This document shows, one piece after another, positions 1,814-18,848 of a stretch of 32,953 nt of DNA. The position numbers were made by a program, and so were the translations under genes. Origin of the DNA: an uncultured Clostridia bacterium (GTDB lineage Bacteria; Bacillota; Clostridia; Oscillospirales; Oscillospiraceae); assembly GCA_947572235.1 (NCBI GenBank), contig CANPBB010000017.1, positions 1 through 32,953 of the forward strand, in the 5' to 3' direction. The notes below the pieces were generated by a model, which saw only the letters and a program-made list of their open reading frames with translations, had not been told where the DNA came from and did no database searches. Numbering within the stretch: position 1 is the first letter of the stretch; each line of letters begins with the position of its first letter.

Positions 1814-2116
1814 ATGAGACAAGTGAGACGATGTAAGAGCCGGGAGGAGATCATCCAGTACCTCGAGAAGCTGGTCTTCTATCGGCCCAACGATGGGATT
1901 CGGATTGCCTTTACCGATGAGCCGTCGGATTTGAAGCACTGCCACCTGGAGGGGATTTCGGAGTTTAAGCGGTACGCCAATGGGACAGTGGAGATGAAGT
2001 TTTTGGACCGGCTGAAGGCGCTGGAGCTGCTGGTGCGGCTCCAAGGGGAGCCGGAGGCGGAGGGCGGGGGGCTGGAGGCCTTCCTGAGCGCGGTGAGCGG
2101 AGGTGAGGAGGCGTGA
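1814..2116 (+). CDS. Phage terminase small subunit, C-terminal type (short)
   Basis: About 100 residues. The central segment ANGTVEMKFLDRLKALELL matches the conserved C-terminal block of clostridial and PBSX-type terminase small subunits, where a [D/N]G-x-VE-[V/M]-K-F/H-D-[K/R]-x-[K/R]ALE-L motif precedes an acidic tail. In such phages this protein recognises viral DNA and hands it to the large subunit. The usual N-terminal helix-turn-helix domain is absent: the frame opens only about 100 bases after a terminator, and the residues upstream of the start do not look coding. Start choice is uncertain. GGAGG at 1807-1811 lies 2 bases from ATG 1814 and 11 from GTG 1823. The gene overlaps terL by 4 bases (GTGA). 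The protein may be a truncated or reduced form. Confidence 0.6.
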   Translation: MRQVRRCKSREEIIQYLEKLVFYRPNDGIRIAFTDEPSDLKHCHLEGISEFKRYANGTVEMKFLDRLKALELLVRLQGEPEAEGGGLEAFLSAVSGGEEA

Positions 2117-3354
2117 GGTTCTCGCCCAAGCAGCGGCAGGTCCTGCTCTGGTGGCGGGAGAGGCCGGAGCTTGAGGGGATCATCTGCGACGGGGCTGTGC
2201 GCAGCGGCAAGACCCTCTGCATGGGCATCGGCTTCTTCTGCTGGGCCATGGGGAACTTTGACGGGCGGTGCTTTGTCCTGTGCGGCAAGACCATTGGGGC
2301 CCTCCGGCGGAATGTACTCTGGGAGGTGCTGCCGGTACTAAGGCGGATGGGGATGGGTGTCCAAGAGCGGCGGGGGGAGAATTTGCTGGTCCTCCGGAGC
2401 GGCGGACGGGAGAACCGGTTTTGTCTGGCGGGGGGCAAGGACGAGGGCAGCGCGGCGCTGATCCAAGGGGCCACCTTCGCCGGGGCGCTGCTGGATGAGG
2501 CGGCGCTGATGCCCCGGGGCTTTGTGGAGCAGGCGCTGGCCAGGTGCAGCGTGGAGGGGGCCAGACTGTGGTTCAGCTGCAACCCGGAGGGGCCGGGGCA
2601 CTGGTTTTACCGGGAGTGGATTCTGAAGGCGGCGGAGCGGCGGATGCTCTACCTCCACTTTACCATGGAGGACAATCCGGGGCTGTCCCCGGCCATGCGG
2701 GAGCAGTATCAGCGGCGGTACGCCGGGGCCTTCTACCGGCGGTTTGTGCTGGGGGAGTGGACCGCGCCGGCGGGGCGGATCTATGACTTCTACCGGCGGG
2801 AGGACTACGCCAGGCCCAAGCCCCAAGGGGCGGCGGAGCGGTGGTGCGTCAGCGTGGACTACGGCACCGCCAACCCCTGTTCCATGGGGCTCTGGGGGAA
2901 GTTCGGGGCGGCCTGGTACCGGGTGGAAGAGGTGTACTACGCCTCCCGGGAGACCGGGGTGCAGCGGACGGACCAGGAGTATGTGGAGATGCTGAAGAGG
3001 CTGGCCGGCGGGCGCCGGATCGAGCAGGTGGTGGCGGATCCCTCCGCTGTCAGCTTCATCACCGCCCTCCGGCGGGAGGGGTTCCGCGTGGTGGGGGCGG
3101 TGAACGACGTCCTCTCGGGCATCCGCGTGACGGCGGGGCTCCTCAAGAGCGGGCGGCTGGTGATCTGCGAGAACTGCGAGGACTGCCTGCGGGAGCTGGA
3201 GGGCTACTGCTGGGAGAGCCCTGAGGGGGGCCGGGAGGCCCCGAGGAAGGAGAACGACCACGCCATGGACGACATGCGCTACTTCGCCGCCACTGTGGCG
3301 GGGCGGGAGGGGGCTTTGGGCGTGGGGGGCGTGGCGGTGGAACGAAGGGGGTAA
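2113..3354 (+). CDS. Phage terminase large subunit (PBSX XtmB-like)
   Basis: A 413-residue packaging motor: an ATPase that pumps DNA through the portal and a nuclease that cuts the concatemer. The N-terminal ATPase domain has Walker A GAVRSGKT (27-34), Walker B LLDEA (126-130) and a coupling motif SCNPEGP (155-161). The C-terminal RNase H-like nuclease keeps its acidic residues: D249 in SVDYGT, D309 in VADPS, and D386/D387 in HAMDDMRY. Length is normal for the PBSX Terminase_3/Terminase_6C type, and nothing is truncated. It starts at GTG overlapping the previous stop. All catalytic positions survive despite the otherwise reduced cassette, which argues for selection or recent activity. Confidence 0.92.
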   Translation: MRFSPKQRQVLLWWRERPELEGIICDGAVRSGKTLCMGIGFFCWAMGNFDGRCFVLCGKTIGALRRNVLWEVLPVLRRMGMGVQERRGENLLVLRSGGRENRFCLAGGKDEGSAALIQGATFAGALLDEAALMPRGFVEQALARCSVEGARLWFSCNPEGPGHWFYREWILKAAERRMLYLHFTMEDNPGLSPAMREQYQRRYAGAFYRRFVLGEWTAPAGRIYDFYRREDYARPKPQGAAERWCVSVDYGTANPCSMGLWGKFGAAWYRVEEVYYASRETGVQRTDQEYVEMLKRLAGGRRIEQVVADPSAVSFITALRREGFRVVGAVNDVLSGIRVTAGLLKSGRLVICENCEDCLRELEGYCWESPEGGREAPRKENDHAMDDMRYFAATVAGREGALGVGGVAVERRG

Positions 3355-3530
3355 GGGGCAGGAGCTGTTTGGAGCCTTCGCGCCGCCTCCGGCGGCGGGA
3401 TTTGAACGTTTGGAGCGGCGGGTGACAAGTAAAGAGAATGGGGCGCCTATGTTTTGGGCGGGAGCGGGACGCGTTCACTCCGAACCCCTCACGCAGACAT
3501 GATTCCTAACTCGAAATCAAGGAGGGTTTT

Positions 3531-4691
3531 ATGAGGATTTGGCGGAAGAAAAAGCTGGCGGCGGGGGCGGCTTGTTCGCAGCTGCGGCGGCCGGGGGCGG
3601 AGTGGGGGACGCTTTCGGCGGTGAGCCTGGGGGCGCAGGGGCAGCTGTATCGGGCGGTGCGGGCCGCCGTGCCGGCGGTGGATGCCGCGGTGGGGAAGAT
3701 TGTGCGGCTGGCCGGCGGGGTGAGGGTGGCCTGTGAGGAGCCGGCGGCGGAGGCGGCGATAGCGCGGTTTCTCAGGGAGGTGCCGGTGGGCCATGGACAG
3801 GTGGGGCTCAATGCCTTTTTGGACATGTACCTTGACTCCATGCTGACCTTTGGGCAGGCGGTGGGGGAGATGGTGCTGGATGGGGAGAGGCGCGATATTG
3901 CCGCGCTGCTCTGCGGCAGGGTGGAGGACATCGAGATACGGCAGGGGGCCTCGCCGCTGGAGTTTGCCGTCTGCGGGCCGGGGAGGGACGGGAAGATGGA
4001 GCCGCTGCCCCGGCAGGAGCTGCTGCTGTTTACCCCCTACAATCCCGAGGCGGATCAGCCCTATGGGGTGTCCATGCTGCGGGGGATGCCCTTTTTGGCG
4101 GAGCTGCTGGGGAAGATCTACACCGCCATGGGGGAGAACTGGGAGCGGATGGGGAATGTGCGCTTCGCGGTGGTGTACAAGCCCCAGAGCGGGGAGCTGG
4201 AGCCGGCGGCCTGCGCCCAGCGCAGCCGGCAGATTGCCGAGGAGTGGAGCCGGGCCATGGAGAGCGGCCGGGACGGCAGCGTCCGGGACTTTGTGGCCAT
4301 CGGGGATGTGGAGATCAAGGTCATCGGGGCGGACAACCAGATTTTGGACAGCGAGGTGCCGGTGCGTCAGATTTTGGAGCAGCTGGTGGCCAAGACGGGA
4401 ATCCCGCCCTTTATGCTGGGGCTCAGCTGGTCCTCCACCGAGCGGATGAGCACCCAGCAGGCGGACATTTTGACCTCGGAGCTGACGGCCATCCGGCGGG
4501 GGCTGACGCCGGTGGTGGAGCGGATCTGCCGGCTGTGGCTCCGGCTCCACGGGTGGTACGGCGGCTTTACGGTGGTCTGGGACGACATCAATTTGCAGGA
4601 TCAGGTGGAGGAGGCCAAGGCGGCGTGGTACCGCCAGCAGGCCAGACAGATTGCCCAGAGCTGTGAGAGAGCGGAGAGAGGAGAGGGATGA
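3531..4691 (+). CDS. Phage portal protein
   Basis: A 386-residue protein in the portal slot between terminase and prohead protease. Portals form a dodecameric ring at one capsid vertex, through which DNA passes. The sequence shows the typical portal layout: an N-terminal arm, a clip/stem region with FDMYLDSMLTFGQAVGEM-like helices near 100-120, and the C-terminal helical stretch with EQLVAKTGIPPFMLG (about 280-295), matching the common portal motif in which a trial-and-error helix ends in GIPP-x-x-LG. The ATG at 3531 has an excellent AAGGAGGG site. It follows a 176-base gap without a gene. The stop overlaps the next start (ATGA). Confidence 0.85.
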   Translation: MRIWRKKKLAAGAACSQLRRPGAEWGTLSAVSLGAQGQLYRAVRAAVPAVDAAVGKIVRLAGGVRVACEEPAAEAAIARFLREVPVGHGQVGLNAFLDMYLDSMLTFGQAVGEMVLDGERRDIAALLCGRVEDIEIRQGASPLEFAVCGPGRDGKMEPLPRQELLLFTPYNPEADQPYGVSMLRGMPFLAELLGKIYTAMGENWERMGNVRFAVVYKPQSGELEPAACAQRSRQIAEEWSRAMESGRDGSVRDFVAIGDVEIKVIGADNQILDSEVPVRQILEQLVAKTGIPPFMLGLSWSSTERMSTQQADILTSELTAIRRGLTPVVERICRLWLRLHGWYGGFTVVWDDINLQDQVEEAKAAWYRQQARQIAQSCERAERGEG

Positions 4692-5605
4692 TCATGGAGA
4701 TCAGAAAGAATTTGGCCAGCGGCGCGGCGGCGGTGGTCAGCGAGGGGGAGCTGGCGGAGATTAACCGCCTGTCCCAGAAGCCCTTGGGGGCGGGGGAGGT
4801 CTATACCTTTGCCCTGCGCCTGTGCGACAACGAGGTGGATCGGGATTTTGAGCGCTTTGATGAGGGGTGTTTGCGGGAGCTGGGGCCGCTGTTTGTGGGG
4901 CGGAGCGGCATCTTTGACCACCAGTGGTCCACCAAGGGGCAGAGCGCCCGGGTCTACCGCGCGGAGGTGGTCCGGGAGGAGGGGCAGGTTACGGCCGCGG
5001 GGGACACCTACTGCTGGCTGAAAGCCTATGCCTACATGCTCCGCACCGAGGGGAATGAGGAGCTGATCCGGGAGATCGAGGGGGGCATCAAGAAGGAGGT
5101 CAGTGTGGGGTGCAGCGTGGGGAAACGGGTCTGCTCCGTCTGCGGGAAGGAGCAGTGCGCCCACGTGCCCGGGCATATGTACGGCAGCCAGCTGTGCTTT
5201 TTGACGCTGCGGGAGGCCAGGGATGCCTATGAGTGGTCCTTTGTGGCGGTGCCCGCCCAGCGGTCGGCGGGGGTGGTGCGCAAGAGTATGCGGAAGGCCG
5301 CCACGCTGAAGGCGATGGTGGAACAGTCCGGGGAGGAGGGGCTTGTGGAGGAGCTGCGGCGGCTGGAGCAGGAGGCGGCGCTGGGGCGCGGCTATCTCCA
5401 GGGGCTTCGGCAGGAGGTGACGCGGCTGGCGGCGCTGGCGGATGAGGACTTGGACGGCAAAATCTTTGCCGCCATTGCGGAGCGTCTGGAGGAGGCGGAG
5501 CTGCTGGAGCTGCGCAAGGTCTACCGCAGGCGGACGGAGGGGCCTGATGGCGCGCAGCTGAGGGGAAGGCCCCGGGAGGAGAGCGGCAGCGCGTTTATGG
5601 TGTAG
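4688..5605 (+). CDS. Prohead (capsid maturation) protease with zinc-finger insert
   Basis: A 305-residue protein between portal and capsid. The N-terminal half has the pattern of phage serine proteases that trim the scaffold: D/N-E-V-DRDFERF (about 48-57), H78 in IFDHQW, S139 in KEVSVGCSVG, and WSFVAVPAQ (183-191). H78 and S139 are the likely catalytic pair. A C-x2-C-x4-C-x-H cluster (149-159) followed by GHMYG resembles the metal-binding insert that many clostridial phage proteases carry after the active serine. Residues 205-285 are charged and helical and probably form the scaffold or delta domain fused to the protease. The start may be ATG 4688 or ATG 4694; the AGGAG at 4679-4683 fits either. 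Confidence 0.75.
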   Translation: MIMEIRKNLASGAAAVVSEGELAEINRLSQKPLGAGEVYTFALRLCDNEVDRDFERFDEGCLRELGPLFVGRSGIFDHQWSTKGQSARVYRAEVVREEGQVTAAGDTYCWLKAYAYMLRTEGNEELIREIEGGIKKEVSVGCSVGKRVCSVCGKEQCAHVPGHMYGSQLCFLTLREARDAYEWSFVAVPAQRSAGVVRKSMRKAATLKAMVEQSGEEGLVEELRRLEQEAALGRGYLQGLRQEVTRLAALADEDLDGKIFAAIAERLEEAELLELRKVYRRRTEGPDGAQLRGRPREESGSAFMV

Positions 5606-5662
5606 GCTGTTTCCCGCCGGGGGCCGGCGGGGCGGCGATAGATTTTGGATGGGAGGTTTCTT

Positions 5663-6007
5663 ATGAAGGTTTCTTTTGAGGGGATCGGGCAGTGGTGCGC
5701 TACGTTTTTCGGGGGCGTCACCAAGGGGCATGTGGTGAAGGTGGACGGCGGCGGCTGTGTGGCGGAGTGCGCCGCCGGCGAGCCCTTCTGCGGGGCGGCG
5801 GCGTATGCCGGGGAGGACGCCTGTACGGTGCAGATGGGCGGCTTTGTCACCGTGGGCTACAGCGGCACGGCGCCGGCGCTGGGGTACACCGCCCTCGCCG
5901 CCGATGGGCTGGGCGGCGTGCAGAGCGCCGGCGAAGCGGAGGGCGGCGTGAGCCGCTGGGTGGTGGACCGGGATGAGGGCAATAAGACGGTGACCATTCT
6001 GCTTTGA
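5663..6007 (+). CDS. Probable capsid decoration or head-associated protein
   Basis: A 114-residue protein placed immediately before the major capsid gene, the usual site of a decoration or stabilising protein (lambda gpD, DUF2190-like). The sequence is rich in Gly, Ala and Val with short beta-strand segments, such as KGHVVKVDGGG and MGGFVTVGYSG, which fits a small beta-barrel. ATG 5663 has GGGAGG eight bases upstream; an upstream in-frame ATG at 5645 lacks a site. There are three or four cysteines but no metal motif. The assignment rests on position, size and composition, not on a recognised motif. Confidence 0.55.
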   Translation: MKVSFEGIGQWCATFFGGVTKGHVVKVDGGGCVAECAAGEPFCGAAAYAGEDACTVQMGGFVTVGYSGTAPALGYTALAADGLGGVQSAGEAEGGVSRWVVDRDEGNKTVTILL

Positions 6008-6026
6008 GGAAAGGGGAGGTATGAGG

Positions 6027-7058
6027 ATGGACTACAGATTCAACCAAGTGAAGCTGGAGAAGGGGATGTATCAGGAGAGCGGCCGGAGCTTTACCGAGGT
6101 GCTGGAGAGTATGGATCCCAGCGAGGGGTATCGGGGGACCGCGATGGAGGGGCTGGACGCCTTCCAGCGCCAGCTGAAGCGGTTTGATATCCATGTGAGG
6201 GGGCCGAAGAGCGACAGGGTGGAGAAATTCTTCCACTGCGCCCAGTCGGCGGTGCTCTTCCCCGAGTTCGTGTCCCGGGTGGTCCGGCAGGGGATGGAGG
6301 AGAACAGCATCCTGAAGGACATCACCGCCACGGAGACGGTGTTTGAGGGGATGGATTACCGCACCATCACCTCTGTGCCATCGGAGGACGACAAGAGCCT
6401 CTGCCGGGTGGAGGAGGGGGCGCAGCTGCCCCAGACCACCATCAAGACCCAGAGGAATCTGGTGCGCCTCCATAAGCGGGGGCGGATGCTGGTGGCCTCC
6501 TATGAGGCGGTGCGCTTCCAGCGGCTGGACCTGTTCGCGGTGACGCTGCGCCAGATCGGCGGGCATATCGCCCGGATGCACATGGAGGACGCCATCGAGG
6601 TGGTGCTCAAGGGGGACGGCAACAGCAACGCCGCCGACAGCTTTCAGGTGGGGAGCGGCCCCATCTCCGGGCAGGCGGGGGAGCTGAGCTATGGGGCCCT
6701 GCTGGAGTTCTGGGCCCAGTTCGACCCCTACTGCATGAACACCATGCTGGTACCGGGGGATGTGATGCTCCAGCTTCTGAAGCTGCCGGAGCTGCAGAAT
6801 CCCCTGACGGGGCTGAATTTTCAGGGCACCGGCACGCTGACCACGCCCCTTGGGGCCAAGCTCCTGCGCACCGCCGCCATGCCGGCGGGGACGCTGGTGG
6901 GGCTGGACAGACGGTATGCCCTGGAGATGGTCACAGGGGGACAGGTGATGGTGGAGGCGGACAGGCTCATCGACCGCCAGCTGGAGCGGGCGTCTATCAC
7001 CAGTATCTCCGGGTTCGCCAAGCTCTACCAAGGGGCGTCCAAGGTGCTGAAGGTGTAA
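6027..7058 (+). CDS. Phage major capsid protein
   Basis: About 343 residues, in the slot between protease/decoration and the head-tail connectors, with the length and pattern of HK97-fold capsid proteins of PBSX/Mu-like phages. Supporting stretches are a charged N-terminal arm, SAVLFPEFVSRVVRQGM (about 74-90), an ITATET-x-F loop, and a C-terminal segment with LVGLDRRYALEMVTGG and VEADRLIDRQLERASITSI, typical of the A domain that closes with a conserved dimer/hexamer contact. ATG 6027 is seven bases after GGAGG (6015-6019), a better spacing than ATG 6021. No frameshift or truncation is seen. Confidence 0.82.
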   Translation: MDYRFNQVKLEKGMYQESGRSFTEVLESMDPSEGYRGTAMEGLDAFQRQLKRFDIHVRGPKSDRVEKFFHCAQSAVLFPEFVSRVVRQGMEENSILKDITATETVFEGMDYRTITSVPSEDDKSLCRVEEGAQLPQTTIKTQRNLVRLHKRGRMLVASYEAVRFQRLDLFAVTLRQIGGHIARMHMEDAIEVVLKGDGNSNAADSFQVGSGPISGQAGELSYGALLEFWAQFDPYCMNTMLVPGDVMLQLLKLPELQNPLTGLNFQGTGTLTTPLGAKLLRTAAMPAGTLVGLDRRYALEMVTGGQVMVEADRLIDRQLERASITSISGFAKLYQGASKVLKV

Positions 7059-7080
7059 CAAAAGCGGAGGAGGGCGACGG

Positions 7081-7449
7081 ATGACGGAGGAGATCTATCG
7101 GCTGGCGGCGGGGCTGGCCAGGCCATCGGAGGAGGAGGGGGAGCTGCTGCGCCTGCTGTGCCGGGAGGCGGAGCGTCGGCTGACGCGGCAGGCGGGGGAG
7201 AGGCGGGAGGAGTGCCGGGAGGCCCTCCTCTGCGCCGCCGCCTTCCTCGGAGCGGCGGGGCTGATAGACAGCCGCTGCGGCCAGGACATCGGCGGAGGTG
7301 TGGAGCGGTTCAGCGTGGGGGAGGTCTCCGTGACCACCGGCGGCGGGGGGGGCGGCGGCGCCGGGGAGCGGCTGCGGCGCCAGGCGGAGCGGATGATGGC
7401 CCCCTACTGCGGCGGCGAGGGATTCGCCTTTCTGGGGGTGCGGGGATGA
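7081..7449 (+). CDS. Head-tail connector-like protein (YqbG/gp6 slot)
   Basis: A 122-residue, mostly helical protein after the capsid gene. In PBSX/skin order the same slot holds YqbG (DUF3199), a neck protein of the lambda gpFII/HK97 gp6 type. The first 75 residues form charged helices with periodic Arg/Leu. A run of eight glycines (about 86-93) then links to a short C-terminal helix. The glycine run comes from a GGC/GGG tract that could be slippage-prone. The stop overlaps the next ATG. The function is inferred from position and shape. Confidence 0.5.
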   Translation: MTEEIYRLAAGLARPSEEEGELLRLLCREAERRLTRQAGERREECREALLCAAAFLGAAGLIDSRCGQDIGGGVERFSVGEVSVTTGGGGGGGAGERLRRQAERMMAPYCGGEGFAFLGVRG

Positions 7450-7766
7450 GAGAGATGCTGGCCGGGATTCTCGGCACCTATGGGCAGCGGGTGAGCTGTC
7501 CGGAGAGCGGGGAGAGCTGGCGGGCTTTTGTGCAGCCGGTAAAAAGCAATGCCTCGCAGGAGGAGCGGCGGAGCACGGCGCTGGGGGATGTGGACCGGCG
7601 GCGGTGGCTCTATATCGGACCGGCGGACCGGGAGGTGGACCGGGAGGATCGGCTCCTTTGGGAGGGACAGGTCTATCGGGTGCGGGAGAGCGTGCTGGTG
7701 CCCTTCGGGGACGCGCCCCTCTACTGTCGGGCGGTGCTGGTGCGGGAGAGGGTGACGGTGGTATGA
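7446..7766 (+). CDS. Head closure protein (YqbH/XkdH-like, DUF3599 slot)
   Basis: A 106-residue protein starting at ATG 7446 inside the previous stop (ATGA). It begins MREMLAGILGTYGQ and has beta-rich stretches WRAFVQPVKS, RRRWLYIGPADR and GQVYRVRESVLVPFGDAP. These resemble the phage head-closure fold (SPP1 gp16/YqbH), which seals the neck after packaging. Gene order (capsid, connector, closure, completion, sheath) supports this. The next gene again overlaps by four bases. Confidence 0.55.
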   Translation: MREMLAGILGTYGQRVSCPESGESWRAFVQPVKSNASQEERRSTALGDVDRRRWLYIGPADREVDREDRLLWEGQVYRVRESVLVPFGDAPLYCRAVLVRERVTVV

Positions 7767-8284
7767 CAAGCGGTGTGGAGCTGGTGCGGCAGGCGGTGGT
7801 AGAGCGGCTGCGCGCCCAAGGGGTGCAGGCGGAGGCCGCCTACAGCCGGGAGTGGGCCGGACGGTATCAGGGAGCGGTGGTGGCTGTGGGGGTGCGGGGG
7901 TTTGCCAGCACCTCGGCGGGGCTGGGAAGCTATTTGGGCGCGGTGTGGGATCGGGAGGCCGGGACGGATCGGGAGATCTATGGGCGGCAAGCGGAGCTCA
8001 CGCTGGCGCTGGACGCCTACGCCCCCCGGGAGGCCGGCGCCGCCGGGTGCCTTGCGGCCTTGGAGGCGGCCCACGACGCCCTGACTGTCTCCCCCGCGGC
8101 GGGACTGCGGCCGGGACGGATGGACTGGGGCGAGGCCCGCTTCGACCCGGACAGCGGGATGTTTTTGCAGCGGGGCTCCCTCCAGTGCGGCGCGTTCTTT
8201 GTGGCGGCGGTGGAGGCGGAGACGGGACTGCTGCTGAGTTTTCGATTGAAAGGAGTGCCTTGGATTGAGCATGATAGTACATGA
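7763..8284 (+). CDS. Tail completion/terminator-like protein (XkdJ slot)
   Basis: A 173-residue protein between head closure and sheath. In PBSX the equivalent slot encodes XkdI/XkdJ, which finish the neck and cap the tail tube. It begins with a helix (MTSGVELVRQAVVERLRAQG), then strand-rich sequence and an AALEAAHDALTV helix. The C-terminal part has GSLQCGAFFVAAVEAETG. Its 3' end overlaps the TTG start of the sheath gene by 20 bases, which suggests translational coupling. I know of no catalytic motif in it. Confidence 0.5.
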   Translation: MTSGVELVRQAVVERLRAQGVQAEAAYSREWAGRYQGAVVAVGVRGFASTSAGLGSYLGAVWDREAGTDREIYGRQAELTLALDAYAPREAGAAGCLAALEAAHDALTVSPAAGLRPGRMDWGEARFDPDSGMFLQRGSLQCGAFFVAAVEAETGLLLSFRLKGVPWIEHDST

Positions 8285-9323
8285 GCGGCCGGGGGTGTAT
8301 TCCTCCTATGACGCCTCCTCGGTGGTGCAGCGCCACGGCGGGGGCAAGGTGGTGGGGCTGGCGGCCCTGTCCGGCAAGGGGGAGAGCGGGCAGGTGGTGA
8401 CGCTCACCAGCCTGGAGGCGGGTCTGGCCGCCTTTGGCAGTGACGGGGAGACCAAGGGGATGGAGGCCATGCTCCGCCTCCTCTTCGCCAATGGGGCCGG
8501 CGTGGTGAAGGCGGTGCGCGCCGCCGACGCCGACCACTACGGCGACGCCTTCGACGCGCTGAGCATGGAGGAGGATGTGCAGGTGGTTACCTGTGACAGC
8601 GGCGAGCTGTCGGTACAGCAGCTGCTGCGGGCCAGTTTAGAGGAGGCCAGCGCCGCCCGCCGGGAGCGCATCGGCGTGGTGGGCAGCGCCGGCGAGACGG
8701 TGGCCCAGCTCATCGAGCGGGCCGGAGCGCTGAACAGCGAGCGCGTGGTGCTGGCGGGGGGCGATGTGCTCTCAGAGGACGGGAGCCGTCTGCCGGGGAT
8801 GCTGGCGGCGGCGGCGCTCTCCGGGGTTATCGCAGCCAGCGGCGACCCGGCGGCGCCCATCAACGGGGCGGTGCTCCGGGGCCTGGGCGGCACGGCGGAG
8901 CGGTACGGCGACAGCGGCATCGACCTGCTGGTCCGGGGCGGCGTGACGCCCATAGAGGGCGTGGGCGGCGCGGTGTCGGCGGTGCGGGGGATCACCACCA
9001 GGACCAAGACCGGGGGGACGGCGGACAGCACCTGGCGGGAGCTGAGCACGATTTTGATTGTGGACGACGTGATCCCCGCGGTGCGTGCCGCCCTGCGCAG
9101 CCGCTTCGCCCGGAAGAAGAACACCGCCCAGACCAGAGGGGCCATCCGCTCGCAGGTGATTGTGGAGCTGGAGAGCAAGATGGTGGCGGAGATTATTGAC
9201 GGCTACGGCGATGTGTCGGTGTCAGTGGACGCGGCGGACCCATCGGTGTGCGTTGTGGAGTTCAGCTTCGCTGTGGCCCACGGGCTGAATCAGATCTATC
9301 TGACAGCCCACATCACGGTGTGA
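8265..9323 (+). CDS. Contractile tail sheath protein (XkdK-like)
   Basis: A 352-residue sheath protein, the subunit that contracts to drive the tube into a target. Family signs are the N-terminal RPGVYSSYDAS, GGVTPIEGVGGAVSAVRGITTRT (about 224-246), and a C-terminal domain from about 255 with LSTILIVDDVIPAVRAALR, RGAIRSQVIVEL and a final FAVAHGLNQIYLTAHI. It is shorter than PBSX XkdK (about 466), so an outer domain is reduced. The start is TTG 8265, nine bases after AAAGGAG; the alternative ATG 8271 is too far from that site. Presence of a sheath means the particle would be a myovirus-type or contractile injection device. Confidence 0.88.
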   Translation: MSMIVHERPGVYSSYDASSVVQRHGGGKVVGLAALSGKGESGQVVTLTSLEAGLAAFGSDGETKGMEAMLRLLFANGAGVVKAVRAADADHYGDAFDALSMEEDVQVVTCDSGELSVQQLLRASLEEASAARRERIGVVGSAGETVAQLIERAGALNSERVVLAGGDVLSEDGSRLPGMLAAAALSGVIAASGDPAAPINGAVLRGLGGTAERYGDSGIDLLVRGGVTPIEGVGGAVSAVRGITTRTKTGGTADSTWRELSTILIVDDVIPAVRAALRSRFARKKNTAQTRGAIRSQVIVELESKMVAEIIDGYGDVSVSVDAADPSVCVVEFSFAVAHGLNQIYLTAHITV

Positions 9324-9364
9324 GCCCCCACAGGGGCGGAGAACAGGGACAGAGGAGGGAAGGT

Positions 9365-9757
9365 ATGGCAAAGGTGACGGGATTTCCCACCAGCAGCGAC
9401 ATCTATTTGGAGCTGGAGGGGAAAAAGGTGGCGGTGGTGCAGAGCTACAGCGTCAGGACCACCAAGACCAGTCAGGTGATTGAGGCCTTCGGGGAGGAGG
9501 AGCCGGTGGCCACCATCGGCGGGCAGTGCCAGTATGTGCTGGAGCTGACGCGGCTCTATGCCACCGATGACGCCATCAGTGACGGGATCGACTTTTATGC
9601 GATGAGGGATTTTTCGCTGGTGATCTGTAAGCCGGACCGGCGGGTGATCTACAGCGGGTGCAACTGGAGCGCCATCGCCGAGGAGGGGAAGCTGGGGGCT
9701 ATGGTGGCGGAGAAGGTGTCCGTGCTGGCCAGAAAGCGGATAGAGGTGCGCGCATGA
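9365..9757 (+). CDS. Tail tube protein (XkdM-like)
   Basis: A 130-residue protein directly after the sheath gene, the standard position of the inner tube subunit of contractile tails. It has the beta-rich pattern of the family: YLELEGKKVAVVQSYSVRT, then EPVATIGGQCQYVLELTRLY and a long DFYAMRDFSLVICKPDRRV segment. ATG 9365 follows a GGGAAGGT site. The last four bases overlap the next gene. Length fits XkdM (about 147). Confidence 0.8.
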   Translation: MAKVTGFPTSSDIYLELEGKKVAVVQSYSVRTTKTSQVIEAFGEEEPVATIGGQCQYVLELTRLYATDDAISDGIDFYAMRDFSLVICKPDRRVIYSGCNWSAIAEEGKLGAMVAEKVSVLARKRIEVRA

Positions 9758-10527
9758 GGGAGAAGGAGATGGTCGAGATCGCCCTGCGCGTGCCCCGGGA
9801 GACGGTGCGCGCGCTGCTGGCGGCGGCGGCAGAGGCCCTGATAGGGGCGGAAGGCCGGGCGCCGATGGCGGTGGAGAATGGGGGGTTCCAGGAGGAGACG
9901 TTTGGCCGGCTGTCCCGGGCGGAGGAGATAGGGGCGAAGGCGCGGCCCGGGACGGCGGAGGAGCGGCCGTCCCGGGCAGAGGATGAGCGGGAGGCCGGCG
10001 CGGCGGAGGATGTCCCGCGAAAGCGGGGCTGGGGGCGGTCCCCTCGCCGGGGGACAAAGCGGCAGTCAGGGGAGGGGGCGGAGGGCCCCTTCCCCGTGGA
10101 GCCCGCGCCCCCGGTGGATATTCCCTTGAAGAGCCTTTCTCCCAAGGAGGTGCTTCCCAAGGAGGTGCTTTCGGAGCGGGGGCTCCGGGGGACGGCCCTT
10201 GGGGTGGAGGAGGCGCCGGCGCGTCGGGGGAGCGGAACGGCGGGGCGGCGTTTGTCGGCTCCGGAGCCGGCCTCCTATGCGGTGGAGCGGCCGATGCCGC
10301 TTGGGAAGGGGCCGGCGGAGAAGGGGCTGGCGGAGTGGCCGATGCCGGCGGAGAAGGGGCCGGCGGAGCGGCCGATGCCGGCGGAGAAGGGGCCGGCGGA
10401 GTTGGAGAGCGGGACGGCGGCGCCGGAGAAAGAGGCGGCGCGGGGGGCGGAGCTGTCGCCTAAGGCGCTGTCGGATCGCTGGGAACGGGACAGCCGGCGG
10501 TATGACGGCGGGTTTACGCTGTATTGA
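9754..10527 (+). CDS. Disordered Pro/Glu repeat protein in the tape-measure slot
   Basis: A 257-residue protein with no family I recognise. A helical N-terminus (residues 1-35, VEIALRVPRETVRALLAAAA) and a short C-terminal segment (LSDRWERDSRRYDGGFTLY) flank a long low-complexity middle rich in Pro, Glu, Ala, Arg and Gly. The middle has 11-residue repeats of the type RPMPAEKGPAE (10288-10401) and a duplicated 15-base unit at 10141-10170. In PBSX order this position should hold the tail chaperone (XkdN) and a tape measure of over a thousand residues (XkdO); nothing else between tube and LysM gene could encode them. It may be a degenerate chaperone, a very short tape measure, or a new function. 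No transmembrane or catalytic motif is seen. Confidence 0.6.
   Translation: MREKEMVEIALRVPRETVRALLAAAAEALIGAEGRAPMAVENGGFQEETFGRLSRAEEIGAKARPGTAEERPSRAEDEREAGAAEDVPRKRGWGRSPRRGTKRQSGEGAEGPFPVEPAPPVDIPLKSLSPKEVLPKEVLSERGLRGTALGVEEAPARRGSGTAGRRLSAPEPASYAVERPMPLGKGPAEKGLAEWPMPAEKGPAERPMPAEKGPAELESGTAAPEKEAARGAELSPKALSDRWERDSRRYDGGFTLY
10288..10401 (+). repeat. In-frame tandem repeat, 33-bp unit
   Basis: Within the gene at 9754 the protein reads RPMPLGKGPAE, KGLAE, WPMPAEKGPAE, RPMPAEKGPAE: three near-identical 11-residue units and one partial unit, 114 bases in total. DNA identity between the last two units is almost complete. This points to recent expansion by slippage or recombination, without loss of frame. 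Confidence 0.85.
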
Positions 10528-10541
10528 GAGGAGGGGGTTCC

Positions 10542-11099
10542 ATGCGTTTGGAGCCGATGCGGTATAAGGGCTACACCTTTCCCCACAATCCGAGGACCTA
10601 TACCATCGCCTTTGAGCGGCTGACGGCGGTGCACAAGATTCCCTTTGGGCGCTACTGCGTGCAGGATTTAGGGCTGGGGTGCCGGGTGCTCCGGGGGGAG
10701 GGGGAGTTTGCCGGGGAGGGGGCCTATGACGAGTTTAAGCGGCTGGCCTCCCTGTTCTATCAGGACGGGCCGGGGATTTTGGTCCATCCGGTGTGGCAGA
10801 CCGCCAGCGCCTATTTCACGGAGCTGTCGCTGGCGGAGGAGCCGCTGCCGGACTATGTGCGCTACCGCTTTGCTTTTGTGGAGGACTTTCCCGGCATCCG
10901 GGAGGGGCTGAGGGAGGTCGTCCAAGGAGTTGGGGCGGCGGAGCAGCGGCGGACGGTGTACACCGTGGCCCAGGGGGACACTCTGTGGGGGGTGGCCGGG
11001 CGGTACGGCGCGACCATGGAGGCACTGCTGCGGGCCAATCCGGCCATCAAGAACCCCAACCTGATCCAAGTGGGGCAGCAGGTGGTGGTGCCGGTATGA
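10542..11099 (+). CDS. LysM baseplate hub-associated protein (XkdP-like)
   Basis: A 185-residue protein with an N-terminal tail domain (YKGYTFPHNPRTYTIAFERL) and a C-terminal LysM domain (about 139-185): YTVAQGDTLWGVAGRYG, then NPAIKNPNLIQVGQQVVVPV. PBSX XkdP and T4-like gp53 relatives carry the same combination; LysM binds peptidoglycan or holds the hub during assembly. ATG 10542 has a strong GGAGGGGG site, and the longer reading from TTG 10524 runs through that site and is unlikely. The stop overlaps the next ATG. In PBSX order the tape-measure gene would lie just upstream. Confidence 0.82.
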   Translation: MRLEPMRYKGYTFPHNPRTYTIAFERLTAVHKIPFGRYCVQDLGLGCRVLRGEGEFAGEGAYDEFKRLASLFYQDGPGILVHPVWQTASAYFTELSLAEEPLPDYVRYRFAFVEDFPGIREGLREVVQGVGAAEQRRTVYTVAQGDTLWGVAGRYGATMEALLRANPAIKNPNLIQVGQQVVVPV

Positions 11100-12034
11100 C
11101 AGTGCGGCTTTTGACGGTGGACGGCCGGCAGTTTGAGCTGCCGGTGACGCTCCGGTGGCGAATCCTGCGTACCGGCGGTGTGCCCTGCGACGAGATAGAG
11201 GCGGTGTGCCTCTACGATGGGAAGCTGGGGGCAATACTGCCCCTGTGCCACCGGTTTGCCGCCTATGAGGGGGAGGAGGCGGTGCTCCGGGGGGTGGTGG
11301 ACGAGTACGCCGCGGAGGTCACAAAGGAGGGGGTGCTGCTCCGCCTCAGCGGGCGGGGGATGGCGGCGCTGCTCATAGACAACGAGGCGGAGGCGGAGAG
11401 CTATCAGCAGGCCACGCTGTCGGAGATCCTGCGGCGGCACGCGGGACCCTATGTGCCCTACGAAAAAACACAGGAGCTGACGGGGAGCGGGGCCTATCGA
11501 GTGAACAGCGGCAGCAGCCAGTGGCGGGCTGTCAGCGGCTTTACGGAGCTGGCGGGGGGCTTTGCGCCCCACATGACGGCCTTAGGGGTACTGCGGGCCT
11601 CCCCCCTGAAGGGGAGCGGGCGGCGGCTGCTGGTGGAGGAGGCCTCGGTGGCGGGCTGTACGGTGCGGGAGCGGCGGTATGGCGTGCTGTCGGAGGTGCT
11701 GGTGAAGGACAAGAGCGGGGGACGGGCGGAGACGGTGCGCCATGAGGATTTTCTCCGCCGGGGCGGCTGCCGGCGGCAGGTGCTGTACATGCCCCGAAAA
11801 AGCTCCGGGGAGGCCATGCGCTACACCGGCGCGTATCAGATTTCAAAGTCCAAGGCGCTGGCGCGGCAGGTGGAGATTACCCTGCCGGGGGCCTTTCAGG
11901 CCCAGCCGGGGGATGTGGCGGACCTGCACTACCCGCCGCTGGGGCTTATGGGAGGATATGATGTGGTGGAGGCGGAGAGCCGGGGGGGCCCGGCGGGGAC
12001 GCTGACCACAATCGTGATGGAGGCGATAGACTGA
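11096..12034 (+). CDS. Baseplate hub protein (XkdQ / gpD late-control-like)
   Basis: A 312-residue protein overlapping the LysM gene by four bases. Order and pattern match XkdQ: an N-terminal strand-rich domain (VRLLTVDGRQFELP), a middle RLSGRGMAALLIDNEAEAES motif typical of hub proteins (G-R-x-x-x-L-L-x-D-N/D), a QWRAVSGFTELAGG helix, and a C-terminal VEITLPGAFQAQPGDVADL with a MGGYDVVEAES segment. Hub trimers of this fold carry the spike and join tube to baseplate. No truncation is seen. Confidence 0.78.
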   Translation: MTVRLLTVDGRQFELPVTLRWRILRTGGVPCDEIEAVCLYDGKLGAILPLCHRFAAYEGEEAVLRGVVDEYAAEVTKEGVLLRLSGRGMAALLIDNEAEAESYQQATLSEILRRHAGPYVPYEKTQELTGSGAYRVNSGSSQWRAVSGFTELAGGFAPHMTALGVLRASPLKGSGRRLLVEEASVAGCTVRERRYGVLSEVLVKDKSGGRAETVRHEDFLRRGGCRRQVLYMPRKSSGEAMRYTGAYQISKSKALARQVEITLPGAFQAQPGDVADLHYPPLGLMGGYDVVEAESRGGPAGTLTTIVMEAID

Positions 12035-12035
12035 G

Positions 12036-12422
12036 ATGTGGATGGGAGAGCGGATGGCCGGGGCGGTGCAGCTGGCCCGGGAGGAGAGCGCCGAGGCGGA
12101 GGTGGGGGTGGCCACCATCGGCGGCGGCGAGGCGGCGGTGCTGACCCGGGGAGAGGACCGGTTTCTGCCGGTGTACGGGCCGGGGGGCGTGGCCTGGACG
12201 CCCAAGGCGGGGGACACGGTGCTGGTGATCAAGGGCGGCAGCGGCCGGGAGGAGCGCTGCATTGCCGGCGCTCTGGCCCGCCAAGAGACGGACGGGCTGG
12301 AGCCGGGGGAGCTGCGTCTCTACAGCGGCGGGGCGTCCCTTACCCTGCGCAACGACGGGACGGTGGAGATCTATGGGCAGCTTATGATCAATGGCTTCCC
12401 CTACGTGCCCTGTATGTGTTGA
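12036..12422 (+). CDS. Baseplate spike / gpV-like protein
   Basis: About 128 residues in the XkdR slot. The sequence has an OB-fold-like N-terminal half (GVATIGGGEAAVLTRGEDRF, then VYGPGGVAWTPKAGDTVLV) and a C-terminal beta-prism stretch (LRLYSGGASLTLRNDGTVEI, then YGQLMINGFPYV). This pattern resembles short P2 gpV/gp45-type spikes rather than classical DUF2577. The end CMC (two Cys near the tip) may bind metal, as some spike tips do, but this is inference. The best start is uncertain: ATG 12036, 12042 and 12054 are all possible, with only weak ribosome binding sites. Confidence 0.65.
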   Translation: MWMGERMAGAVQLAREESAEAEVGVATIGGGEAAVLTRGEDRFLPVYGPGGVAWTPKAGDTVLVIKGGSGREERCIAGALARQETDGLEPGELRLYSGGASLTLRNDGTVEIYGQLMINGFPYVPCMC

Positions 12423-12441
12423 GTTGGAAGGAGGAGACGGC

Positions 12442-12786
12442 GTGGAGCTTTGGCTTCGGGACGGGGACTATGTGCCCGACGGCAGAGGGGGCCTTGTGCG
12501 TTTAGAGGGGGCGGAGGCGCTTTTGCAGCGGGTGCTCTTCCGCCTGTGCGCCCGACGGGGAAGCTTCCCGATGCTGCCGGAGCTGGGCAGTGAGCTCTAC
12601 CGGCTGGGCAGTGAGCCCCGGTGCGGCCGGCTGTCGGCGGCCCGGCAGTATGTGGCCGAGGCCCTGCGGGGGGAGGCGGTCCGCGTGGAGGACGTGACCC
12701 TCTCCGACGGCGGCGGCGGCCGGGTGGCGGTGGAGGTGCGGCTGAGCGGCGAGGGGGAGCGGCTGTCCCTGCGCGTGACGGTATGA
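12442..12786 (+). CDS. Baseplate wedge protein (XkdS / gp25-like, DUF2634)
   Basis: A 114-residue protein starting at GTG 12442, about seven bases after GGAGGAG. It follows the gp25/XkdS pattern: an N-terminal LRDGDYVPDGRGGLVRLEG stretch, then ALLQRVLFRLCARRGSFPML (short helix ending in a turn before PELGSEL), then AARQYVAEALRGEA and two C-terminal beta strands. The gp25-type protein starts sheath polymerisation at the baseplate. An open frame also extends upstream to 12391, but that part overlaps the previous gene and has no site. Confidence 0.75.
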   Translation: MELWLRDGDYVPDGRGGLVRLEGAEALLQRVLFRLCARRGSFPMLPELGSELYRLGSEPRCGRLSAARQYVAEALRGEAVRVEDVTLSDGGGGRVAVEVRLSGEGERLSLRVTV

Positions 12787-12792
12787 GGAGGT

Positions 12793-13848
12793 ATGATGCG
12801 GGATATTGAGGCGATTTATCAGGAGATGATGCAGGTGTTTTCCCAGCGCGCCGGCTATCTCCCTGCCGACGCCTGCGACCTGTCGGTGCGGCTGTACGCC
12901 TTGGCCGCGCAGGTGCAGGCGCTGTACGCGCAGGCGGACTGGGTGATGGCTCAAAGCTTTCCCCAGACGGCGTCGGGGGTGTATTTGGACTGCCACGGGG
13001 AGGTGCGGGGGATCGTCCGAGGCGCCGCCACGGCGGCCAGGGGGGCGGTGCGCTTCTTTGTCTCCGCCCCGGTGGGGCAGGATTTGGCCATCCCGGCGGG
13101 GACGGTGTGCATGACGGCGGGGGGCCTCCGCTTTGCCACGGAGGCGGCGGCGGTACTGCCGGCAGGGAAAAGCTATGTGGATGTGGCCGCGCAGGCCATG
13201 GAGACGGGGACGGCGGGGAATATCGGTCCGGGGGTGATCACGGTGATGGCAGTGCCCCCGGCGGGGATCACCCGGTGCGCTAACCCGGAGCCTTTCGCCG
13301 GCGGGGCGGAGGAGGAGAGCGACGCGTCGCTGCGGGAGAGGATTCTAAACAGCTATCGCCGCCTCCCCAACGGGGCCAACGCCGCCTTCTATGAGCAGGA
13401 GGCTATGGGATTTCCGGCGGTGGCGGCGGCTGCGGCGGTGGGCCGGGCCCGGGGGATCGGGACGGTGGATGTGTATGTGGCCACTGTGGCCGGGGCCCCG
13501 GAGGCACCGCTGCTGGAGGAGATCCAGGCCTATTTGCAGGAGAAGCGGGAGATCGCGGTGGACTTGCAGGTGAAGGCCCCCAAGCTGCGGCCGGTGGCCC
13601 TCCAGACGGCGCTGAAGCCGGCGGCGGGGTACACCCACGAGGAGGCTGCTGCGGCGGCGGACGCGGCGCTGCGGGGATACTTCACCGGCCGGCTGTTGGG
13701 GAAGGGCGTACTGCGGGCGGAGCTGGGGAATCTGCTCTACCAGCTGCCCAGCGTGGCCAACTATCAGATTATCACCCCGGCGGCGGATGTGCCGGCGGCG
13801 GTGGGGGAGCTGCCTACCCTTCAGTCGCTGACCATTGGGGAGGTTTAG
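12793..13848 (+). CDS. Baseplate J protein (XkdT-like)
   Basis: A 351-residue wedge protein that links the baseplate to the fibres. Typical signs are YLDCHGEVRGIVRGAAT (about 65-81), VRFFVSAPVGQDLAIPAGT (strand, then IPAGT), RFATEAAAVLPAGK, GTAGNIGPGVITVM and SDASLRERILNSYRRLPNGAN (about 177-197). This order matches the Baseplate_J family. It is close to XkdT in length (about 348). The start is ATG 12793 or 12796 after GAGGAGG. No fibre gene follows the next gene, so the attachment point seems unused here. Confidence 0.85.
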   Translation: MMRDIEAIYQEMMQVFSQRAGYLPADACDLSVRLYALAAQVQALYAQADWVMAQSFPQTASGVYLDCHGEVRGIVRGAATAARGAVRFFVSAPVGQDLAIPAGTVCMTAGGLRFATEAAAVLPAGKSYVDVAAQAMETGTAGNIGPGVITVMAVPPAGITRCANPEPFAGGAEEESDASLRERILNSYRRLPNGANAAFYEQEAMGFPAVAAAAAVGRARGIGTVDVYVATVAGAPEAPLLEEIQAYLQEKREIAVDLQVKAPKLRPVALQTALKPAAGYTHEEAAAAADAALRGYFTGRLLGKGVLRAELGNLLYQLPSVANYQIITPAADVPAAVGELPTLQSLTIGEV

Positions 13849-13851
13849 CGT

Positions 13852-14418
13852 ATGGGGTACGGCGGGTATTTGAAGGAGCTGCTGGGGCCATTGGGGGTCT
13901 ATGACCTGTCGGAGGGGTCCCTCAGCGGCGGCGAGCTGGAGGCGGCGGGGGCGGCTCTGGACGGCTGCGGCGCCGCTGTGGAGCGGGCGGAGCGGGAGGT
14001 GATCCTGTCCACGGCGGAGGCGGAGGGGCTGAGGCTGCGGGAGGATCTCTTCGCCCACCGGCCGGCGGACTATGGGGTGAAGCGGCGGCGGGAGGCCATC
14101 GCCGCGCTGCTCCAGGTCAGCGGGGACAGCTTCACGCTGGCGGGGATCAATCGGGCAATCCGGGGCTGCGGTATCTGGGCGCTGGCGCAGGAGACGGGGG
14201 AGTATGGGCATATTCGGGTGATTTTTCCCGATGTGTCCGGGATTCCCGAGGGGTTTGAGCAGATTCGGGATGTGATTTTGGATCTGATTCCCTGCCATTT
14301 GGAGACGGAGTTCTATTTCCGGTATATTACTTGGGCGGAGTGTGAGGCGCAGGGGTTTACTTGGGAGATGGTGCATCGGGCGGAGCATACTTGGTATAGC
14401 TTTGAACTATCAGTCTGA
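13852..14418 (+). CDS. Tail protein XkdU-like (DUF2313/YmfQ)
   Basis: A 188-residue protein, the last recognisable gene of the cassette. The N-terminal half is helical and acidic; the second half has GVKRRREAIAALLQVSGDSF, then LAGINRAIRGCGI and HLETEFYFRYITWAECE, the latter fitting the conserved C-terminal block of YmfQ/XkdU proteins. In PBSX, XkdU precedes the fibre genes XkdV-XkdX and lysis genes; here a strong hairpin begins inside its last codons (14407-14423) and no further tail gene follows. Third-position GC falls slightly in the last 150 bases (many ATT and TTT codons). Confidence 0.7.
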   Translation: MGYGGYLKELLGPLGVYDLSEGSLSGGELEAAGAALDGCGAAVERAEREVILSTAEAEGLRLREDLFAHRPADYGVKRRREAIAALLQVSGDSFTLAGINRAIRGCGIWALAQETGEYGHIRVIFPDVSGIPEGFEQIRDVILDLIPCHLETEFYFRYITWAECEAQGFTWEMVHRAEHTWYSFELSV

Positions 14419-14894: not shown

Positions 14895-14910
14895 AATAGG
14901 GGGCGGGGCG

Positions 14911-18796: not shown

Positions 18797-18848
18797 GGGG
18801 GGCACCTTCCTTCCTTTAATTAGGAGCGGCGGATTTGAATTTGGGTTT

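What the first reader, a model, noticed from the sequence alone, without database searches (positions are those of the whole stretch)
1814..14418. Phage structural cassette without integration, lysis, fibre or tape-measure genes
Seventeen plus-strand genes keep PBSX/skin order from terminase to XkdU-like, most with four-base overlaps, and key residues of terminase, protease and sheath are intact. There is no integrase, repressor, holin, endolysin, tail fibre or tape measure in the cassette, and genes on the right are ordinary host genes. Codon and base composition match the host. Known cases of intact but incomplete heads and tails are gene transfer agents and phage-derived bacteriocins. A bacteriocin would not need packaging genes, while a gene transfer agent would. 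Alternatively it is an old prophage that lost its ends, or genes outside the left edge complete it.
Basis: partly seen in the sequence, partly recalled or inferred. Interest (0 to 1): 0.75.

Follow-up and report, generated by a model that had tools for sequence, protein, structure and literature searches.

The report
Domesticated phage particle of gut Oscillospirales
Many related gut bacteria carry one copy of the same stripped-down phage head-and-tail gene set, inherited from parent to offspring and kept intact by selection, most likely as a gene transfer agent that packages and ships pieces of the bacterium's own DNA.

Summary
The cassette is real: 18 intact plus-strand genes, TerS to XkdU, without recognisable integrase, repressor, lysis, fibre or tape-measure gene. 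It is not a private prophage. Its capsid gene occurs in 71 of 200 genomes of the host family (Oscillospiraceae by record titles) and in other families of the order, nearly always once per genome; a class sample gave three weak matches outside the order. Gene order is the same in 59 of 59 distinct family loci. Head genes follow the host RpoB tree (21 of 32 splits shared, 0.2 by chance); ordinary prophage capsids in 16 of the same genomes do not. dN/dS against the sister species is 0.04-0.62. The window's TerS lacks the DNA-binding domain, as known GTAs do; it changed state 7 times on the host tree. Loci of other families often lack the sheath or most of the tail but keep the head. In four 0.7-0.9 Mb genomes terminase, portal and capsid genes are scattered yet retained. 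Best reading: an ancient gene transfer agent, perhaps akin to published Faecalibacterium FpGTA. Packaging, release and delivery were not shown here.

The parts
1814..2116 (+). TerS, small terminase, C-terminal part only (100 aa); N-terminal DNA-binding domain missing
   Evidence: Pfam Terminase_2 positions 59-127 of 141, E 0.0025, below Pfam cut-off; TerS profile found in 46 of 46 long named loci
2113..3354 (+). TerL, large terminase, ATPase and nuclease motifs intact
   Evidence: PHROG 2, E 3e-46; Pfam Terminase_6N, E 4e-16; motifs
3531..4691 (+). portal
   Evidence: PHROG 30703, E 1e-153
4688..5605 (+). XkdF-like prohead protease/scaffold with Cys-His knuckle
   Evidence: PHROG 16951 (unknown function), E 1.5e-115; H76 and S137 invariant in 112 of 112 distinct sequences; the name XkdF and the protease role are recalled
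5663..6007 (+). decorator-like virion structural protein
   Evidence: PHROG 4588, E 3e-22
6021..7058 (+). major capsid protein
   Evidence: PHROG 3922 major head protein, E 8e-108; Pfam PF25209, E 7e-14
7081..7449 (+). XkdH-position neck/connector protein
   Evidence: no family hit; profile found in 46 of 46 long named loci
7446..7766 (+). head closure Hc1-like
   Evidence: PHROG 501, E 1e-3; 43 of 46 loci
7763..8284 (+). XkdJ-position tail completion-like protein
   Evidence: PHROG 25177, unknown function, E 3e-34
8271..9323 (+). tail sheath, 350 aa
   Evidence: PHROG 279, E 3e-44; Pfam PF17482 and PF04984
9365..9757 (+). tail tube (XkdM position)
   Evidence: PHROG 27038, unknown function, E 3.5e-59; 46 of 46 loci
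9754..10527 (+). gene 12: low-complexity 257-aa protein in the tape-measure slot; only its C-terminal motif is conserved; candidate miniature tape measure or assembly chaperone
   Evidence: no PHROG or Pfam hit; alignment A5 invariant R245, R248, R249, D251, F254 in 8 of 8
10542..11099 (+). XkdP-like hub protein with C-terminal LysM domain
   Evidence: Pfam LysM, E 6.5e-15; DNA_circ_N, E 1.5e-6; PHROG 184 baseplate hub, E 2e-10
11096..12034 (+). XkdQ-like baseplate hub
   Evidence: PHROG 177, E 9e-23
12036..12422 (+). XkdR-position protein
   Evidence: PHROG 25991, unknown function, E 1e-27
12424..12786 (+). XkdS-like sheath initiator / wedge subunit
   Evidence: PHROG 975, E 2e-6; PHROG 43, E 3.5e-5
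12793..13848 (+). XkdT-like baseplate J
   Evidence: Pfam PF04865, E 3e-51; PHROG 6, E 4e-64
13852..14418 (+). XkdU-like, Mu Gp48 family
   Evidence: PHROG 521, E 8e-15; Pfam PF10076, E 1e-4, below Pfam cut-off
14908..16652 (+). right-hand neighbours: PadR regulator and DUF2812 protein, host-type genes, shared with sister G086
   Evidence: Pfam PadR, E 2e-11; DUF2812, E 5e-15
16748..18805 (-). recG-like host gene that also lies near the cassette in several relatives
   Evidence: named by eye from the sequence; tblastn; L056

Best explanation
This is a domesticated, vertically inherited phage-derived DNA-packaging particle, most likely a gene transfer agent of the order that contains Oscillospiraceae. 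Proposed working, step by step. (1) Inferred: a host signal switches the operon on. (2) Genes intact, assembly inferred: capsid, XkdF-like protease, portal and decorator build a head. (3) Inferred from the missing DNA-binding domain of TerS and the intact ATPase and nuclease of TerL: the motor starts at no particular site and fills heads with random host DNA. (4) Inferred: neck, tube, sheath and baseplate form a short contractile tail whose length is set by the small gene-12 protein instead of a normal tape measure. (5) Not found here: lysis and receptor-binding genes, which in some relatives sit next to the cassette. (6) Unshown: particles reach kin and deliver DNA. Shown here: cohesion of the gene set, purifying selection, descent with the host, absence of the TerS recognition domain in the window, and retention of the head-packaging core in loci that lack tail genes and in genomes where the operon is scattered.
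For: Family-wide, nearly always single copies: 71 of 200 genomes, 47 of 106 genera; second family 87 of 197 genomes, 59 of 125 genera. Same order in 46 of 46 named and 20 of 20 unnamed loci, 7 of them shared, so 59 distinct. Congruence with RpoB: 21 of 32 bipartitions shared versus mean 0.22 and maximum 3 in 500 shuffles; 1 of 20 strong head splits conflicts; Mantel r 0.68, P 0.0001. Control: PF05065 prophage capsids in 16 of the same genomes, r 0.04, P 0.31, against 0.68 (capsid) and 0.87 (four head genes) for the cassette. dN/dS window versus G086 0.036-0.62, no stops. TerS N-terminal domain absent in 65 of 104 distinct sequences incl. the window (Pfam check); [quoted passage not shown] Head core kept where tail genes are not found. 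Scattered in four reduced genomes, dN/dS 0.045-0.179 for six genes in G1002 versus G1082, TerL motifs kept 4 of 4. No phage record close: apart from five unverified fecal contigs the best capsid match in 50,697 phage records is about 26% identical. GTA-like packaging of random DNA was reported from Oscillospiraceae and Ruminococcaceae in human faeces (PMC12946183, sections 9, 10 and 26 read).
Against: No packaged DNA, particle, release or transfer was seen here. The two lysis-gene types tested were not found convincingly in G000 (M15 endolysin only E 9e-4; PF05105 holin none), though this genome is 87% complete. No fibre or receptor-binding gene was recognised in the cassette. TerS keeps the N-terminal domain in 39 of 104 distinct relatives, so random packaging cannot be assumed for all. 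The capsid gene was not found in 129 of 200 family genomes, so the element is dispensable in many lineages. Position in the chromosome is not conserved between genera. The authors of PMC12946183 searched an Oscillospiraceae MAG with GTA-like packaging (Onthomonas) for GTA-like elements and report a strong candidate only in Faecalibacterium, which speaks against a cassette like this one being obvious there. Congruence could in part reflect phages that rarely leave their host clade. The cassette's GC is 68% against 60-65% for its surroundings and other pieces of the genome. dN/dS rests on one close pair in the host family and one in f26.
Confidence: 0.7

Rival explanations
1. A PBSX-like killer particle: it packages host DNA or nothing, cannot deliver it, and kills related cells by its contractile tail. 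Selection is for killing.
For: Sheath, tube position, LysM hub and baseplate genes are intact in the window.
Against: Across the order the shared core is the head and packaging motor: in the 20 loci L251-L270 of other families sheath was found in 3 and TerL in 19. A killer would be expected to keep the tail and lose the head. No fibre or receptor-binding gene was recognised beside the cassette.
Confidence: 0.14
2. An old defective prophage that lost its ends and is decaying.
For: Incomplete gene set and no recognised integration or lysis genes.
Against: dN/dS 0.036-0.62 with no stops, same order over the family, invariant catalytic residues in 103 and 112 distinct relatives, dN/dS 0.045-0.179 in a pair of reduced genomes.
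Confidence: 0.03
3. The heads serve the host in a way other than gene transfer to kin: as DNA stores, decoys, DNA delivery to other organisms, or protein shells.
For: Some lineages keep head and neck genes with no recognised tail at that locus (L252, L253, L255), and 0.7-0.9 Mb genomes keep head genes.
Against: TerL with its ATPase and nuclease motifs, and a portal gene, are found in all four reduced genomes (the portal frame of G1082 lacks its first part), so DNA is probably still moved; G985 also keeps neck, tube-like and baseplate-like genes beside TerL (L415). Tail genes may lie elsewhere, as reported for FpGTA.
Confidence: 0.08
4. A lineage of active temperate phages confined to this order, of which genome assemblies show only the structural block.
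For: IMG/VR lists 443 relatives as viral contigs (80 kept). One of them, L218, has a tyrosine-integrase-like gene (by eye) 136 bp right of XkdU. Three weak capsid relatives exist outside the order, and G491/L269 has a divergent head without a close TerL.
Against: Recognisable neighbours are mostly host-type genes. No integrase is among the 25 commonest Pfam families of 150 neighbours within 1.3 kb of 46 loci; 88 rarer families were not shown. Nearly always one copy per genome, and a congruence that ordinary prophage capsids lack.
Confidence: 0.05

Closest known systems
FpGTA of Faecalibacterium prausnitzii (PMC12946183, Nat Commun January 2026)
   Same: Small operon with TerS lacking an obvious DNA-binding domain, TerL, portal, scaffold and capsid; no replication genes. 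The paper also reports GTA-like packaging in Oscillospiraceae (Onthomonas) without naming a gene cluster there.
   Different: FpGTA I has ten ORFs and is called podovirus-like; a second locus carries baseplate, fibre and lysis genes. Ours has 18 genes with a contractile tail. Sequence homology was not tested: no named FpGTA sequence could be searched.
PBSX / skin element of Bacillus subtilis
   Different: Ours has no recognisable tape-measure or lysis genes or regulators beside it, is inherited across an order, and its TerS lacks the N-terminal domain. The PBSX comparison rests on recalled gene names and cited passages, not on alignment here.
RcGTA, BaGTA and other known gene transfer agents
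   Same: TerS without DNA-binding domain (PMC11841831 passages); vertical inheritance, purifying selection and multi-locus genes in some hosts (recalled).
   Different: RcGTA is siphovirus-like (recalled). No sequence relation to RcGTA was tested.
Tailocins and diffocins
   Same: Contractile tail block without replication or integration genes (recalled).
   Different: They lack heads and terminases (recalled); here the head and terminase are the most widely kept part.

Membership tests
Gene transfer agent | Phage-derived structural and packaging genes in the host chromosome | tested here: met
Gene transfer agent | No integration or replication genes with the cluster | tested here: met
   window; sister contig by eye; 150 neighbours of 46 loci, (top 25 of 113 families seen); exception L218
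Gene transfer agent | Vertical inheritance with the host | tested here: met
Gene transfer agent | Maintained by purifying selection | tested here: met
   (one pair each); three further pairs were saturated in dS for many or all genes
Gene transfer agent | Small terminase without DNA-binding domain | tested here: met
   window: met; relatives 65 of 104 distinct sequences
Gene transfer agent | Particles hold random pieces of host DNA too short to carry the cluster | not testable with these tools
   reported for the host family by others, without this cluster
Gene transfer agent | Transfer of host genes to recipients | not testable with these tools
   needs experiment
Gene transfer agent | Lysis genes for release | tested here: inconclusive
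   not found in G000 by two queries; adjacent in some relatives
FpGTA | Sequence homology of head genes to F. prausnitzii FpGTA I | not testable with these tools
PBSX-like killer particle | Contractile tail with sheath, tube and baseplate | tested here: met
   window and family
PBSX-like killer particle | Tape-measure and lysis genes beside the tail block | tested here: not met
Active temperate prophage | Integrase, repressor and replication genes | tested here: not met
   for the cassette; no PF00589 hit listed on C17 (list cut: 4 of 6 G000 hits seen)
Tailocin | Tail only, no head or terminase | tested here: not met

The most novel reading that the evidence does not exclude
One gene transfer agent was domesticated at or near the root of the order, before its families split, and has since descended with its hosts. 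Its DNA-recognition domain was lost about seven separate times, its tail was shed or changed in several families, and in 0.7-0.9 Mb genomes its genes were dispersed through the chromosome yet stayed under strong selection. FpGTA would be one late branch, and this machine would underlie much of the capsid-borne bacterial DNA seen in the human gut.
Probability: 0.5. Interest if true: 0.9.

Novelty: new variant of a known kind. Interest (0 to 1): 0.8.

Why it matters
Gene transfer agents are known from few lineages, mostly Alphaproteobacteria (PMC12946183, introduction passage). A contractile-tailed one inherited across an order of abundant gut bacteria, with its head genes kept even in strongly reduced genomes, would offer a gene set to test against the GTA-like DNA packaging already measured in faecal particles, and would let the open question of what GTAs do for their hosts be tested by deleting one terminase gene in culturable strains. 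It also suggests that part of what IMG/VR lists as viral contigs is a resident host element: 37 of the 80 relatives kept carry at least 16 of the 18 gene profiles.

Tried and rejected
One search compared head genes with wrongly extracted RpoB (antisense frames in seven genomes) and gave no overall correlation; one search replaced it with checked frames. One search used badly extracted control capsids (r 0.15); one search replaced it (r 0.04; one control, G356, is below the Pfam cut-off and one, G439, is only 136 residues). One search stopped with an error after part of its list; gene 12 was then aligned for 8 loci only. Counts held seven loci twice; one search recounts distinct sequences. dN/dS for two further genus pairs was largely saturated, and one portal value there (0.93) is an extraction artefact. 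The M15 endolysin search gave full-length hits only in G157 and G154 of 25 genomes; the other 18 genomes with a match had partial ones, mostly of the C-terminal third. A LexA-type box upstream of TerS was found in 1 of 110 loci, 0.65 expected, so SOS control is not indicated by that motif. The capsid model was poor (pLDDT 53) and no fold search was run. Integrase places were cut off, so that call is weak evidence. I could not test whether FpGTA is homologous, nor whether Onthomonas carries the cassette. Five GenBank 'Bacteriophage sp.' fecal records hold this head; three with long flanks look chromosomal by eye (L056, L057, L418). They may come from a virus-like-particle study (PMC8361208, passages only), but its passages show no matching accession.
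Full report
What is in the window. The window is all of contig C17 of a draft genome of 2.63 Mb in 156 contigs, 87% complete. From 1814 to 14418 lie 18 plus-strand genes. PHROG and Pfam scans name terminase, portal, virion structural protein, major head protein, head closure, sheath, LysM hub, hub, wedge, baseplate J and Gp48-like proteins; the remaining positions are labelled by order and by recalled PBSX names. No integrase, repressor, holin, endolysin, fibre or tape measure was recognised among them. To the right come PadR, DUF2812 and a recG-like gene.

It is not a private prophage. The capsid protein was found in 71 of 200 genomes of the same family and in 47 of 106 genera. Seventy have one match, one has the gene split over two contigs, and one match has a stop inside. 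In the order, 71 of 394 genomes matched; one of them, G485, has two full copies and one, G555, two short pieces. In the class, 11 of 391 matched and three of these, weak ones, lie outside the order. With a broader profile, 87 of 197 genomes of a second family matched. Record titles of the named relatives are mostly Oscillospiraceae, Oscillibacter, Dysosmobacter, Flavonifractor, Pseudoflavonifractor, Lawsonibacter and Intestinimonas; a few say Butyricicoccus, Ruminiclostridium, Ruminococcaceae or only Clostridia or Bacillota (best 80 of 569 relatives kept). A contig titled uncultured Oscillospiraceae (L092) equals the contig of G157, which is in the window's genus.

The gene set holds together. 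Of the 80 named loci, 46 reach far enough on both sides. TerS, TerL, portal, XkdF, capsid, the XkdH and XkdJ positions, tube, P, Q and R are present in 46 of 46; sheath, S, T and U in 45; Hc1 in 43; decorator in 40; gene 12 by sequence in 26. The genes found are in the same order in 46 of 46 and in 20 of 20 unnamed family loci; 7 are in both sets, so 59 are distinct. L054 lacks the genes from neck to baseplate except a P-like one, and L049 has a weak sheath. Median span is about 12.8 kb (45 loci). Catalytic residues of TerL are invariant in 103 of 103 distinct sequences, and the XkdF histidine, serine and metal knuckle in 112 of 112.

It descends with the host. For 35 genomes of three families a tree of TerL, portal, XkdF and capsid (1426 columns) was compared with RpoB (1207 columns). 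They share 21 of 32 bipartitions; 500 label shuffles gave a mean of 0.22 and a maximum of 3. One of 20 strongly supported head splits conflicts with a strong RpoB split. Mantel r is 0.68 overall, 0.77 in the host family and 0.80 in f23, each with P 0.0001. The window itself is not in this test, since its RpoB is a fragment; G086 stands for it. As a control I took the best ordinary phage capsid (PF05065) in the 16 of these genomes that have one. Its r with RpoB is 0.04 (P 0.31), against 0.68 for the cassette capsid and 0.87 for the four head genes in the same 16 genomes.

It is under selection. Between the window and G086 all 18 genes have dN/dS below 1: 0.036 for TerS, 0.057 for XkdU, 0.076 for capsid, up to 0.50 for the decorator and 0.62 for gene 12, with no stops. 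Two other family pairs were largely saturated in dS and are not used.

The packaging specificity domain is gone. Longer TerS proteins of relatives match Pfam Terminase_2 from position 1, 6 or 19 to 128; the window's TerS matches only 59-127. A profile of the missing N-terminal part finds it in 39 of 104 distinct TerS proteins and not in 65, including the window. On the RpoB tree of 35 genomes this takes 7 changes, or 7 losses if it was ancestral; shuffled labels give 11.2 on average. [quoted passage not shown] I take this as the best sequence sign of unspecific packaging. It also means that not every relative can be assumed to package at random.

The head is the core, the tail is not. In the 20 regions fetched from f23 and f26, capsid was found in 20, TerL in 19 and sheath in 3. 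Some loci have baseplate genes without a sheath (L254, L256, L260 with a tube-like gene; L257, L259, L261, L262 without a recognised tube). Three (L252, L253, L255) have eight or nine head and neck genes and then host-type genes. Others (L265-L268) have head genes and a hub-like gene. This pattern argues against a tail-based bacteriocin as the function kept by selection. Which state is ancestral was not tested.

The strongest evidence comes from reduced genomes. G985, G1069, G1002 and G1082 have 0.7-0.9 Mb and are 88-97% complete. Each keeps capsid plus XkdF at one place, TerS-TerL at a second and portal at a third; in three of the four, two of these places lie on one contig more than 110 kb apart. 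In G985, TerS-TerL is followed by neck-, tube-, baseplate- and hub-like genes (L415); in G1002 and G1082 by a histidyl-tRNA-synthetase-like gene (named by eye). TerL motifs are kept in 4 of 4. Between G1002 and G1082 dN/dS is 0.045-0.179 for six genes; G985 versus G1069 was saturated. The portal frame of G1082 lacks its first part and has a stop in the alignment. A phage operon that has been taken apart and scattered while its genes stay under selection is no longer a phage. Four family genomes without the capsid also gave no portal, and no TerL apart from one weak hit in G080.

How it probably works. Heads assemble and are matured by the XkdF-like protease; TerL, with a TerS that lacks site recognition, fills them with chromosomal DNA; a short contractile tail is attached. 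Gene 12 lies where phages of this type carry the tape measure. It is 257 residues here, and only its last residues are conserved (R, RR, D and F invariant in 8 of 8). I suggest, without proof, that it is a miniature tape measure fixed by its C-terminus to the hub. Release and target recognition are open: some relatives have M15 or CHAP endolysins, holins or small carbohydrate-binding proteins just right of XkdU, but none was recognised there in the window, and two queries found none convincingly in its genome.

Relation to known systems. The nearest published case is FpGTA in Faecalibacterium (PMC12946183, sections 9, 10 and 26 read): ten ORFs with TerS lacking an obvious DNA-binding domain, TerL, portal, scaffold and capsid, plus a second locus with baseplate, fibre, holin and endolysin. 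Particles of about 40 nm hold about 9 kb. The same paper reports GTA-like packaging events in Oscillospiraceae (Onthomonas, 3 of 25 events) and says that an Onthomonas MAG was among those searched for GTA-like elements, with a strong candidate in a Faecalibacterium MAG; that no cluster like ours is reported there counts against a simple link. I could not test whether FpGTA is homologous. Searches of the paper library (no preprints, few subscription journals) for gene transfer agent with Oscillibacter or Flavonifractor returned nothing; broader searches showed, by titles and abstract starts, no other paper on a GTA of this order.

Limits. Host DNA packaging, particle structure, release and transfer were not observed. 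Flank scans show only the 25 commonest of 113 Pfam families. Start codons were chosen by me. Completeness of the window genome is 87%, so absences in it are weak.

Noticed in passing
G985, G1069, G1002, G1082 (loci L389-L392, L401, L403-L405, L411-L416): In 0.7-0.9 Mb genomes the head genes of the element are dispersed over three chromosomal places but retained; TerS-TerL lies beside a histidyl-tRNA-synthetase-like gene in G1002 and G1082.
   Followed up: partly
L171-L250 (IMG/VR contigs): Of 80 kept relatives, 13 carry all 18 profiles, 37 at least 16, and 27 loci are 12.0-14.4 kb long, about the length of the cassette, so a virus catalogue seems to count this host element as viral.
   Followed up: partly
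L056 (MT835769), L057 (MT835508), L417-L419: Five GenBank 'Bacteriophage sp.' fecal records hold this head; three with long flanks look chromosomal by eye (recG-, dfrA- and thyA-like genes in L056; rnf-like and ribosomal protein genes in L057; L418).
   Followed up: partly
L218 18259-19428: A tyrosine-integrase-like gene (by eye) lies 136 bp right of XkdU in one IMG/VR contig; possibly an unrelated insertion.
   Followed up: no
L269 (G491): A divergent head (portal, XkdF, decorator, capsid) without a close TerL beside it; possibly a true phage relative and a candidate outgroup.
   Followed up: no
flanks of about 10 of the 46 named loci, for example L144 left: Histidine kinase genes, nine with a DUF4118 domain, recur among the 150 nearest neighbours, mostly on the left and opposite strand; AddB-like genes in three.
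   Followed up: no
24001-25185, minus strand: AT-rich island (34% GC at 24-25 kb) with a gene that looks by eye like an Mrr-type restriction endonuclease.
   Followed up: no
G485 (f23): The only genome seen with two full capsid copies of this family, on C126 and C72.
   Followed up: no
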